Shown piece by piece: positions 17,556 through 58,816 of a DNA stretch of 64,000 bases. The notes under the pieces were generated by a model, which saw nothing but the letters and a program-made list of their open reading frames with translations, ran no database searches and was not told the origin of the DNA. Source of the stretch: Planctomycetia bacterium (lineage in GTDB: Bacteria > Planctomycetota > GCA-002687715). The first letter of the stretch is position 1. Each line of letters starts with the position of its first letter. The stretch spans positions 1 to 64,000 of the forward strand of contig SXUL01000051.1 in assembly GCA_005790545.1 (NCBI GenBank), read 5' to 3'. The position numbers and the translations under genes were made by a program.

Positions 17556-17594
17556 GCTGTCCTGAGCACACGGGCGAGACTTGCTGCGAGAAAA

Positions 17595-17668
17595 CACGCC
17601 AGGAGGGATTCGAACCCCCGACCGCGGGATTAGAAATCCCGTGCTCTATCCGGCTGAGCTACTGGCGC
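17595..17668 (-). tRNA. tRNA-Arg (anticodon TCT)
   Basis: Minus strand, 74 nt. Acceptor GCGCCAG pairs with CTGGCGT (one G-U), discriminator G. Anticodon stem CGGGA/TCCCG encloses loop TTTCTAA (anticodon TCT, reads AGA/AGG). T arm GGGGGTTCGAATCCCTC. CCA is not encoded. Confidence 0.95.
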
Positions 17669-17691
17669 AGAGCCAGGCGATTCCCAGGCAA

Positions 17692-17764
17692 CGCCCCCGT
17701 CGCGATTCGAACGCGAAATCCCGGCTTCGGAGGCCAGTGGTTTATCCGATTAGCCTACAGGGGC
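17692..17764 (-). tRNA. tRNA-Arg (anticodon CCG)
   Basis: Minus strand, 73 nt. Acceptor GCCCCTG/CGGGGGC. Anticodon stem CTGGC/GCCGG encloses loop CTCCGAA (anticodon CCG, reads CGG). T arm CGCGTTCGAATCGCG. It lies 23 bases upstream of tRNA-Arg(TCT) on the same strand, so the pair is probably one transcript. Confidence 0.94.
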
Positions 17765-17871
17765 AGGCAGGATCAGTTTAGGAGCGGGGCACCGCGGATC
17801 AAGTGTGAGCCTCTCTTCCGCACTTTTCTTGAAGCCCACCATGGCGGCTGATACGGTTGCGCCCTCCCGAC

Positions 17872-17946
17872 GGAGGATGTAGCTCAGTTGGTTAGAGCGC
17901 AAGATTGTGGCTCTTGAGGTCGGGGGTTCGATTCCCCTCATCCTCC
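17872..17946 (+). tRNA. tRNA-His (anticodon GTG)
   Basis: 75 nt. The extra 5' G-1 is genome-encoded at 17872 and pairs with C73 at 17946, the histidine identity pair. Acceptor GAGGATG/CATCCTC. Anticodon stem CAAGA/TCTTG encloses TTGTGGC (anticodon GTG). CCA is not encoded. Confidence 0.96.
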
Positions 17947-17989
17947 CTCCGGTTCAGGTGTGCTTCACCGCACACTTGGACCACGACAC

Positions 17990-18062
17990 GCGTGCGTAGC
18001 TCAGTTGGTAGAGCAGGTGATTCTTAATCACCGGGTCCCAGGTTCGAATCCTGGCGCGCGCA
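17990..18062 (+). tRNA. tRNA-Lys (anticodon CTT)
   Basis: 73 nt. Acceptor GCGTGCG/CGCGCGC with one U-G pair, discriminator A. Anticodon stem GGTGA/TCACC encloses TTCTTAA (anticodon CTT, reads AAG). T arm CCAGGTTCGAATCCTGG. It follows tRNA-His by 43 bases and is followed at once by a terminator hairpin. Confidence 0.96.
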
Positions 18063-18063
18063 T

Positions 18064-18094
18064 CGAGGCCCCGAACAGGGGCCTCGCTTCGTTT
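18064..18094 (+). terminator. Intrinsic terminator after tRNA-His/tRNA-Lys
   Basis: A 9-bp stem CGAGGCCCC (18064-18072) with GGGGCCTCG (18078-18086), loop GAACA, followed by a pyrimidine/T-rich tail GCTTCGTTTC. Confidence 0.75.
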
Positions 18095-18178
18095 CAGGAC
18101 CGAGCGCATCCAAAGTCGCTCCCGGCAACCCAGCTCCGCAGCCCGCCGACTCTGCGCTCACCTCCACTTGCGATCCGC

Positions 18179-18265
18179 CAAGAAAACAGCGGATTTTCTT
18201 GTGACTCCCTTGCAGCCATGCGGTGTTTCCAGCACAATCCGCGCGCCGACTGGGAAAAGTCGGCG
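18179..18265 (+). promoter_or_regulatory. Leader of the HU-like gene with two inverted repeats
   Basis: Two perfect inverted repeats lie upstream of the HU-like gene: CAAGAAAA (18179-18186) with TTTTCTTG (18194-18201), 7-base loop; and an 8-bp hairpin CGCCGACT (18244-18251) with AGTCGGCG (18258-18265), loop GGGAAA, followed by GTTTCT. The first could be an operator or, on RNA, an attenuator-like hairpin. The second is ~20 bases before the ribosome-binding site. A regulatory role is inference from position and symmetry. Confidence 0.35.
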
Positions 18266-18295
18266 TTTCTCCGGGAAAACTACAAGAGGAATCAC

Positions 18296-18610
18296 ATGGC
18301 GAAGAATGCAAAACCCAAGGGCCCCAGCAAGGGCGAAGTTCTGAACGCGATCGCGACGAAGACCGGCCTCAAGCGCAAGGACGTCAAGGGCGTGATGGAC
18401 GAGTTGACCGTGCAGATCCAGAAGTCGCTGAAGAAGCCCGGCCTCATCAGCATCAACGGTCTCATGAAGATCGTGGTGATCAGGAAGCCCGCCACGAAGG
18501 AGCGCAAGGGCACCAATCCCTTCACCGGCGAACCGGCCGTGTTCAAGGCGAAGCCCGCGCGCAACGTCATCAAGATCCGCGCCATGAAGGCGCTCAAGTC
18601 GATGGTCTGA
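18296..18610 (+). CDS. HU-family DNA-binding protein
   Basis: 104 residues from ATG 18296, preceded by a strong AAGAGGA at 18284-18290. HU/IHF fold: KGEVLNAIATKTGLKRKDVKGVMDEL forms the helical dimer part, and the beta-arm region carries KERKGTNPFTGEPAVFKAKPARNVIKIRAMKAL. GTNPFTGE corresponds to the RNPqTGe DNA-bending motif of HU. The basic N-terminal extension MAKNAKPKGP and the modified arm resemble HU-like proteins of planctomycetes. It acts as a nucleoid-architecture protein. The gene is monocistronic with a terminator 24 bases after the stop. Confidence 0.92.
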   Translation: MAKNAKPKGPSKGEVLNAIATKTGLKRKDVKGVMDELTVQIQKSLKKPGLISINGLMKIVVIRKPATKERKGTNPFTGEPAVFKAKPARNVIKIRAMKALKSMV

Positions 18611-18633
18611 CAGCTCACGCGCTGTTGATCGCG

Positions 18634-18670
18634 AAGCCCTCTGGACGCCGCGGCGCTCAGAGGGCTTTTT
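18634..18670 (+). terminator. Intrinsic terminator of the HU-like gene
   Basis: A 10-bp stem AAGCCCTCTG (18634-18643) with CAGAGGGCTT (18658-18667) leads directly into a T run (18666-18670). The loop contains a further small GC palindrome. Textbook rho-independent layout. Confidence 0.88.
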
Positions 18671-18692
18671 CGTGGAGTAGAGTGCCGCGTGC

Positions 18693-18774
18693 GCGAGCGT
18701 GGCGGAATTGGCAGACGCACCAGACTTAGGATCTGGCGGGGCAACTCGTGGGGGTTCAAGTCCCCCCGCTCGCA
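18693..18774 (+). tRNA. tRNA-Leu (anticodon TAG)
   Basis: 82 nt class II tRNA. Acceptor GCGAGCG/CGCTCGC, discriminator A. Anticodon stem CCAGA/TCTGG encloses CTTAGGA (anticodon TAG, reads CTA/CTG). It has a long variable arm and the T arm GGGGGTTCAAGTCCCCC. It abuts the stop of the anti-sigma gene on the other strand. Confidence 0.95.
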
Positions 18775-18775
18775 C

Positions 18776-57340: not shown

Positions 57341-57574
57341 ATGAAACTCAGCATCACCTACTGCGTGCAGTGAAATTTCCTGCCACAAGCGGCCGGTCTG
57401 GCCGCTGAACTCAAGGCAAGTCTCGGGCTGGAAGCAGAGATCATCCAGGGCAAGGGCGGCATCTACTCCGTCGTGCTTGACGGCAAGGAGATCTTCAACA
57501 AGAAGGAGATCGGCCGCTATCCCATCCTTGGAGAGGTGACCGGCATCATCAAAGGCATGCACCCGGAGCTCTGA
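57341..57574 (+). CDS. SelW/Rdx-type selenoprotein (in-frame TGA = selenocysteine)
   Basis: ATG 57341 to TGA 57572-57574, 78 codons. Codon 11 is TGA (57371-57373), and readthrough gives a complete 77-residue Rdx (SelW/SelT/SelH) protein: ITYCVQ-U-NFLPQA at the N-terminus, with Cys8-x-x-Sec11 as the redox pair, then AELKASLGLEAEII, GIYSVVLDGKEIFNKKE and GRYPILGEVTGIIKG. The CxxU placed after the first strand is exactly where the family has it. A hairpin with a GGTCT loop follows the TGA at the right distance. The role is thioredoxin-like redox chemistry. Conventional gene finding would split or miss it. Confidence 0.92.
57371..57406 (+). promoter_or_regulatory. Bacterial SECIS element
   Basis: TGA at 57371-57373 is followed by a 7-bp stem AGCGGCC (57388-57394) with GGCCGCT (57400-57406) enclosing the 5-base loop GGTCT. 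The E. coli fdhF SECIS, bound by SelB, has the same apical GGUCU loop. The loop begins 22 bases after the TGA, within the range of known bacterial SECIS elements. Confidence 0.88.
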
Positions 57575-57640: not shown

Positions 57641-58816
57641 TCAGGCCGGTTTCAAGCTCACCAGTGCGTGGACTGAGATCGCTTCACCGCGGCCGAGTGC
57701 GTCGACCCCCTCATGCGTTCGAGCCTTGACCGCCACGCGGTCCAGCGGCAACGCGAGCAACTCCGCGAGTGCCGCCTTCATCTCCGCCTTCCACGGCCCG
57801 AGGCGCGGCTTCTCCGCGATGATGGTCACATCGGCCTGCGCGGGTGCATGGCCAAGCGAACGCAGTTCTTCCAGGGTTCTTGCAAGCAGCGCGCGGCTGT
57901 CGATCCCGCGCAACGCAGGATCGGTGTCCGGGAAGTGCTCTCCGATATCAGGCAAGCCCGCCGCACCGAGAAGTCCCTCGATGAGCGCATGCAGCACCGC
58001 GTCGCCATCGGAGTGGCCGAGGAGATGAACCTCCGCCGATACATCGATACCACCGAGCCGTAGCGGCCCGCCCGGCACCAGTCGGTGAATGTCGAAACCG
58101 AAGCCTGAACGCGGCGTTTCCATGATAGCCCTCGCCAGCCGGAGGTCATCCGCTGTCGTGATCTTGAAATTGAGTGCTGAGTCTTCCACCACATGCACGG
58201 CCACACCATAGTGACGCAGCAGCGCCGCTTCGTCGGTGAAATCGCGACCGTCACGTGCAGCCGCTGTCAGCGCGTCTCGCAGCAGGGCAGCACCCGCTCC
58301 TTGTGGCGTCGCAGCCAGGCGCATGCGTTTCCTGTCCGGCGTCGCGGCAATGCGACCGGCCGCATCGATTTCCTGCAAGGTGGCGGTCACCGGTTGCGCG
58401 AGCAGCGCGGCGTCGTGCTGCGCGAGAGCCTGCAGCAGCCTCTGGATGGCTGCCGTGCTCACCAGCGGGCGCGCTGCATCGTGAATGAGCAGCACATCCG
58501 CGTCCCCGGCAACCGCGACACCCGCTTGCACCGATTCCTGCCGGGTCGCGCCACCAGCCACCACACGCGAGAGGCCCACTTCTCGCAGCCAGCTTGCGAG
58601 GGGCTCCTCGGCCGTGGCTCTCAAATCGTCGCGGTGCAGAACGAGGACCTGCGCTGCGGGCAGAAGCGCTGCGGCCGCATGCGCACCGTGCCACCAGAGT
58701 GGTCTGCCGGCCAGCATGACAGTTCCCTTGCGCACGCTGGCCCTCAGGCGTGAGCCTTCCCCCGCAGCCACGTGCACGATCGCGAATCGTTGGGGGACAT
58801 AGGGCTCGGGCTTCAC
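57641..58816 (-). CDS. ispDF: Bifunctional IspD/IspF (MEP isoprenoid pathway)
   Basis: 391 residues. Residues 1-~230 are IspD (CTP + MEP to CDP-ME): VHVAAGEGSRLRA, HDAARPLVST, TPQGAGAALLRDAL, DEAALLRHYG. Residues ~233-391 are IspF (forms MEcPP): GFGFDIHRLVPGGPLRLGGIDV, LLGHSDGDAVLHALIEGLLGAAGLPDIGEHFPDTDP, VTIIAEKP. IspDF fusions are known in alpha- and epsilonproteobacteria and elsewhere. It supplies precursors to the prenyl chemistry found at 20-25 kb. Alone on its transcript, convergent with the selenoprotein gene. Confidence 0.95.
   Translation of the reverse strand: MKPEPYVPQRFAIVHVAAGEGSRLRASVRKGTVMLAGRPLWWHGAHAAAALLPAAQVLVLHRDDLRATAEEPLASWLREVGLSRVVAGGATRQESVQAGVAVAGDADVLLIHDAARPLVSTAAIQRLLQALAQHDAALLAQPVTATLQEIDAAGRIAATPDRKRMRLAATPQGAGAALLRDALTAAARDGRDFTDEAALLRHYGVAVHVVEDSALNFKITTADDLRLARAIMETPRSGFGFDIHRLVPGGPLRLGGIDVSAEVHLLGHSDGDAVLHALIEGLLGAAGLPDIGEHFPDTDPALRGIDSRALLARTLEELRSLGHAPAQADVTIIAEKPRLGPWKAEMKAALAELLALPLDRVAVKARTHEGVDALGRGEAISVHALVSLKPA

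What the first reader, a model, noticed from the sequence alone, without database searches (positions are those of the whole stretch)
57341..57574. Small SelW/Rdx selenoprotein with a bacterial SECIS
A complete Rdx-family frame is interrupted only by TGA at the Sec position of CxxU. It is followed 22 bases later by a 7-bp hairpin with a GGTCT loop identical to that of E. coli fdhF SECIS. The gene would be lost in automatic annotation. It implies the organism has SelA/B/C/D and tRNA-Sec.
Basis: partly seen in the sequence, partly recalled or inferred. Interest (0 to 1): 0.85.

Follow-up and report, generated by a model that had tools for sequence, protein, structure and literature searches.

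The report
SelW-like selenoprotein gene, Planctomycetota
This is a real gene for a small redox protein in which one apparent stop codon is read as the 21st amino acid, selenocysteine; the bacterium carries the machinery for it, but proteins of exactly this kind have been known in bacteria since at least 2005, so it is a well-supported but ordinary find.

Summary
Window 57341-57574 (+) encodes a 77-residue Rdx/SelW-like protein (Pfam PF10262, E 8e-13) if the in-frame TGA at 57371-57373 is read as Sec (C-V-Q-U). A 7-bp hairpin with apical loop GGUCU (57388-57406, -13.2 kcal/mol) meets all four published constraints for a bacterial SECIS, and the loop is the same as in E. coli fdhF (checked). The genome, a Planctomycetota MAG, carries selA, selB, selC (tRNA-Sec, TCA anticodon) and selD; selD and two thioredoxin-fold genes also have active-site TGA codons. 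Across the phylum, 23 of 24 Rdx genes in a 59-genome sample have the TGA, and all 23 lie in SelB-positive genomes. The hairpin is conserved in register, covaries, and keeps its loop G in 80 of 80 distinct sequences. Loop codons (GGT, AGT) are far more frequent there than in the rest of the genes, so the RNA itself is under selection. It is a new member of a known kind: the bacterial SELENOW-like CxxU selenoprotein family. Insertion of Sec is inferred, not shown; the biochemical role of the family in bacteria remains unknown, most likely thiol-redox.

The parts
57341..57574 (+). selW-like gene: 77-aa Rdx-family protein MKLSITYCVQU(Sec)NFLPQ...HPEL, stop TGA at 57572-57574
   Evidence: Pfam PF10262 E 8.4e-13, NCBIfam TIGR02174 40.6 bits over its cut-off of 34.2; 78% identical to the same-genus homologue
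57371..57373 (+). in-frame TGA read as Sec, second position of the CxxU redox motif
   Evidence: TGA at the same codon in 23 of 24 Rdx genes of sampled relatives and in 80 distinct phylum-wide sequences
57388..57406 (+). bacterial SECIS hairpin AGCGGCC-GGUCU-GGCCGCU, 7 bp
   Evidence: -13.2 kcal/mol; covaries in relatives, 21 cells with both sides changed against 7.9 in shuffles, 0/500 shuffles reach the covariation score
57395..57399 (+). apical loop GGUCU, predicted contact site of the SelB C-terminal domain
   Evidence: G at the second loop position invariant in 80/80, followed by U in 68/80; same loop in E. coli fdhF
57641..58816 (-). ispDF (isoprenoid, MEP pathway) neighbour, convergent; context only
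   Evidence: Pfam IspD and YgbB; ispDF also next to selW in G001 and one gene away in G003

Best explanation
A SelW-like (SELENOW-like, Rdx family) bacterial selenoprotein gene. The ribosome meets UGA at codon 11. SelB carrying Sec-tRNA(Sec) binds the hairpin whose loop starts 22 nt downstream of the UGA and inserts Sec. The product is a small thioredoxin-like-fold protein whose Cys8-Sec11 pair acts as a thiol/selenol redox centre. Shown by computation: the open frame, family, machinery genes, conserved TGA and conserved covarying SECIS. Inferred: actual Sec insertion and the redox role. Unknown: the physiological partner.
For: Rdx family match. selA (501 bits), selD (362 bits, itself with a TGA), selB (319 bits, over cut-off, with the SelB-specific beta-barrel and winged-helix 3 domains) and tRNA-Sec (74.6 bits, anticodon TCA) in the same genome. 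Two further thioredoxin-fold genes have active-site TGA codons: a peroxiredoxin TPTU and a TlpA-like WUGPC. TGA conserved in relatives. All 23 TGA-Rdx genomes are SelB-positive and none of the 15 genomes below the SelB cut-off has one (Fisher p 1.6e-4); the one Cys-Rdx genome in that sample lacks selA, a SelB over cut-off and a selD over cut-off. Hairpin 87.6% of cells paired against 16-53% in slid controls, with covariation. Loop G invariant in 80/80. Loop Gly is GGT in 37 of 41 against 10% in the rest of the genes, and loop Ser is AGT in 29 of 35 against 9%. Published bSECIS rules (stem 4-16 bp, loop 3-9 nt, G in the first two loop positions, 16-37 nt spacing, MFE at most -7.5) are all met.
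Against: No Sec incorporation was measured. The same-genus genome G002 has the machinery but no detectable Rdx gene, so the protein is not essential to the genus, or is missing from that assembly. There is no clear Shine-Dalgarno sequence upstream of the ATG, though the start is conserved.
Confidence: 0.97

Rival explanations
1. A pseudogene: an ordinary CxxC Rdx gene with a chance TGC-to-TGA nonsense mutation or sequencing error.
For: A single base separates TGC/TGT from TGA; the window's genome is a draft MAG.
Against: The same TGA is found in nearly all homologues of the phylum, with a conserved covarying hairpin and RNA-level codon bias. The downstream frame is intact and conserved.
Confidence: 0.01
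2. TGA recoded as another residue genome-wide, such as Trp in code 4, or simple stop readthrough.
For: The TGA is read through in frame.
Against: TGA also ends this gene and many relatives' Rdx genes. Read-through TGAs in the genome fall at redox active sites: CxxU, TPTU, WUGPC and SelD GGU. A complete Sec machinery is present.
Confidence: 0.01
3. The hairpin is a by-product of the coding sequence (QAAGLAAEL is GC-rich) and not a SECIS; Sec insertion would use another signal.
For: 6% of all TGAs in this GC-rich window have some SECIS-like hairpin, and part of the stem falls on conserved codons.
Against: Compensatory changes on both sides at five of seven pairs. Nine distinct non-Sec homologues have a mean local fold of -8.8 against -11.7 kcal/mol and no constant loop G (6 of 9 against 80 of 80). 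Rare codons are fixed in the loop.
Confidence: 0.01

Closest known systems
Bacterial SELENOW-like (SelW-like) selenoproteins, Pfam PF10262 Rdx, motif CxxU (PMC1088965; PMC1794560; PMC13188914)
   Same: Family, CxxU motif near the N-terminus, SECIS immediately downstream of UGA, apical-loop G.
   Different: Nothing categorical; a sequence from a Planctomycetota MAG, 77 aa, motif CVQUN.
NCBIfam NF041051 SelTWH_Campy
   Same: 76.1 bits over nearly the whole protein.
   Different: Below that model's curated cut-off of 88 bits, so not an equivalog by NCBI's rule.
E. coli fdhF SECIS
   Same: Identical GGUCU loop sequence.
   Different: Loop 18 nt after the UGA instead of 21; different stem; unrelated protein.
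Cys-type Rdx proteins with solved structures (2fa8, 2oka, 3dex, 2ojl, 2obk, 2p0g)
   Same: Same fold family by sequence, E 6e-7 to 2.5e-4.
   Different: By the alignments shown (2fa8, 2oka), Cys instead of Sec; these chains are about 103-108 aa against 77 here.

Membership tests
Rdx / SelW-like protein family | Match to the family profile over the curated cut-off | tested here: met
   PF10262 48.8 bits against 22.6; TIGR02174 40.6 against 34.2
Rdx / SelW-like protein family | CxxC/CxxU redox motif near the N-terminus | tested here: met
   C8-V-Q-U11; both columns invariant in 14 aligned relatives with Sec written as C
NCBIfam NF041051 (Campylobacter-type SelT/W/H equivalog) | Score over the equivalog cut-off | tested here: not met
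   76.1 bits against a cut-off of 88; the claim made here is family level, not this equivalog
Bacterial selenoprotein gene | In-frame UGA aligned with Cys/UGA of homologues | tested here: met
   Cys in L012, L062, L063, L064
Bacterial selenoprotein gene | bSECIS: loop 3-9 nt, upper stem 4-16 bp, G in the first two loop positions, 16-37 nt spacing, MFE at most -7.5 | tested here: met
   Loop 5 nt, stem 7 bp, loop GGUCU, spacing 21 nt, -13.2 kcal/mol; criteria from PMC13188914
Bacterial selenoprotein gene | Host has selA, selB, selC and selD | tested here: met
Bacterial selenoprotein gene | Selenium shown in the protein | not testable with these tools
   Needs 75Se labelling or mass spectrometry
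Rdx / SelW-like protein family | Thioredoxin-like fold | not tested
   Inferred from the family; solved Rdx relatives matched by sequence only

The most novel reading that the evidence does not exclude
In Planctomycetota SelW is overwhelmingly a selenoprotein (Sec ancestral and kept, with the hairpin register frozen), spread through about a third of sampled genomes and only partly annotated, with diverged CxxG paralogues that lost the redox partner beside the Sec form; the phylum would be a major reservoir of SelW selenoproteins.
Probability: 0.5. Interest if true: 0.3.

Novelty: new member of a known kind. Interest (0 to 1): 0.2.

Why it matters
It shows that the Sec-decoding trait is complete in this Planctomycetota lineage. 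The phylum-wide set gives a clean SECIS alignment (80 distinct sequences, covariation, fixed loop codons) useful for tuning SECIS predictors and for correcting gene calls truncated at Sec codons. [quoted passage not shown]

Tried and rejected
FdhA: no match over the cut-off in the genus. SelU (2-selenouridine synthase): none. Peroxiredoxin/TlpA family: two genes with active-site TGA in the window's genome. A first script read minus-strand loci in the wrong orientation; its output for those loci was discarded and redone. A chance SECIS explanation from GC-rich coding was tested and rejected by covariation and by comparison with non-Sec homologues. Other TGA-plus-hairpin candidates in the window (3893 +, 61088 +, 35419 -, 26651 -) were judged by eye as out-of-frame translations without a recognisable family and not pursued.

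Full report
Observation. The frame starting ATG 57341 reads MKLSITYCVQ-TGA-NFLPQAAGLAAELKASLGLEAEIIQGKGGIYSVVLDGKEIFNKKEIGRYPILGEVTGIIKGMHPEL and ends at TGA 57572-57574. Read with Sec (written as Cys for the search) it matches Pfam Rdx at E 8.4e-13 and the NCBIfam SelT/SelW/SelH subfamily over its cut-off, while it stays below the cut-off of the Campylobacter-type equivalog. Six Rdx-type solved chains match by sequence. The hairpin is at 57388-57406.

Machinery. The genome holds selA and tRNA-Sec side by side on contig C113, selB on C1 with GTPase, SelB beta-barrel and winged-helix 3 domains, and selD on C36, which itself has an in-frame TGA in GGGU followed by strong hairpins. Two thioredoxin-fold genes have TGA at the peroxidatic or UxxC position. 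UGA is therefore used for Sec in this cell by every computational sign.

Comparative evidence. Among 59 genomes of the phylum, 24 have an Rdx match; 23 of these have exactly one internal TGA, at the same codon in the alignment. All 23 have a SelB over the cut-off; 15 genomes without one have no TGA-Rdx (Fisher p 1.6e-4, computed; genomes are related, so the p-value is indicative only). The single Cys version (G015) lies in a genome without selA, and without SelB or selD over the cut-off. In a 392-genome sample of the phylum 142 have an Rdx gene, and all but 11 of the roughly 150 listed matches carry one TGA. Homologues with TGA also occur in records titled Gemmatimonadota and Egibacteraceae (L096, L098).

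The RNA element. The hairpin keeps its distance from the UGA in the relatives without gaps. With the structure taken from the window, 87.6% of cells pair against 16-53% when the partner is slid; five of seven pairs show changes on both sides; no shuffle reached the observed covariation score. An independent RNAalifold consensus found the same helix. Because the structure came from one of the sequences, the slid control favours it somewhat, but the both-sided changes do not depend on that. In 80 distinct Sec sequences the second loop base is always G and the third is U in 68; 9 distinct non-Sec homologues lack this pattern and fold less well. The loop codon is GGT in 37 of 41 glycines and AGT in 29 of 35 serines although these codons make up about 10% and 9% of Gly and Ser codons in the rest of the Rdx genes (21% and 10% in nearby window genes), and TTG follows in 19 of 76 leucines against 5%. 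This is selection on RNA, not on protein. The published bacterial SECIS model (PMC13188914) is met on all four points. The loop is identical to E. coli fdhF, checked on the K-12 record.

Mechanism. From established knowledge of bacterial Sec decoding: SelA makes Sec-tRNA(Sec) with selenophosphate from SelD; SelB binds both the charged tRNA and the SECIS loop and delivers Sec at UGA. The product would be a small thioredoxin-like protein with a Cys8-Sec11 pair; a thiol-redox role is the family expectation (inference), the partner is not known. The gene sits beside ispDF in convergent orientation, also in G001 and near it in G003, but nothing suggests a functional link.

Comparison with the known. 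SelW-like selenoproteins with bacterial SECIS were described in the Sargasso Sea data (48 sequences; PMC1088965), in the 2006 bacterial survey, where SelW-like was among families with few or no Cys homologues in Sec organisms (PMC1794560), and are listed as PF10262, CxxU in recent reviews (PMC13188914, PMC9312934). Full Sec-insertion gene sets in Planctomycetes were reported in 2016 (PMC4807772). Hence: new member of a known kind, well supported, low novelty.

Noticed in passing
L101-L106 (genomes G151, G348, G280, G342, G137, G319): Rdx paralogues with Gly at the Sec position (CVPGNY, CEVGNY, CELGNY) in genomes that also carry the Sec form in the cases seen; the redox pair is lost, so they may have another role.
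   Followed up: partly
L148 (G000:C98:56600-57700): Peroxiredoxin-like gene with an in-frame TGA at the TPTU position, also in the same-genus genome G001 (L152): a further candidate selenoprotein.
   Followed up: partly
L149 (G000:C97:700-1700), L150, L151: TlpA/ResA-like thioredoxin-fold genes with TGA in WUGPC: candidate selenoproteins in this genus.
   Followed up: partly
genome G002 (same genus): selA, tRNA-Sec, a SelB over the cut-off and selD (split over two contigs) present but no Rdx gene found: loss of SelW while keeping the Sec trait, or an assembly gap.
   Followed up: partly
L045, L048, L055, L058 (G003, G004, G005): In the same family selA, selD (with TGA) and tRNA-Sec lie next to each other; in the window's genus selD lies on another contig. 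G004 has two selD genes, both with TGA.
   Followed up: no
window 17594-18775: Cluster of five tRNA genes (Arg, Arg, His, Lys, Leu).
   Followed up: no
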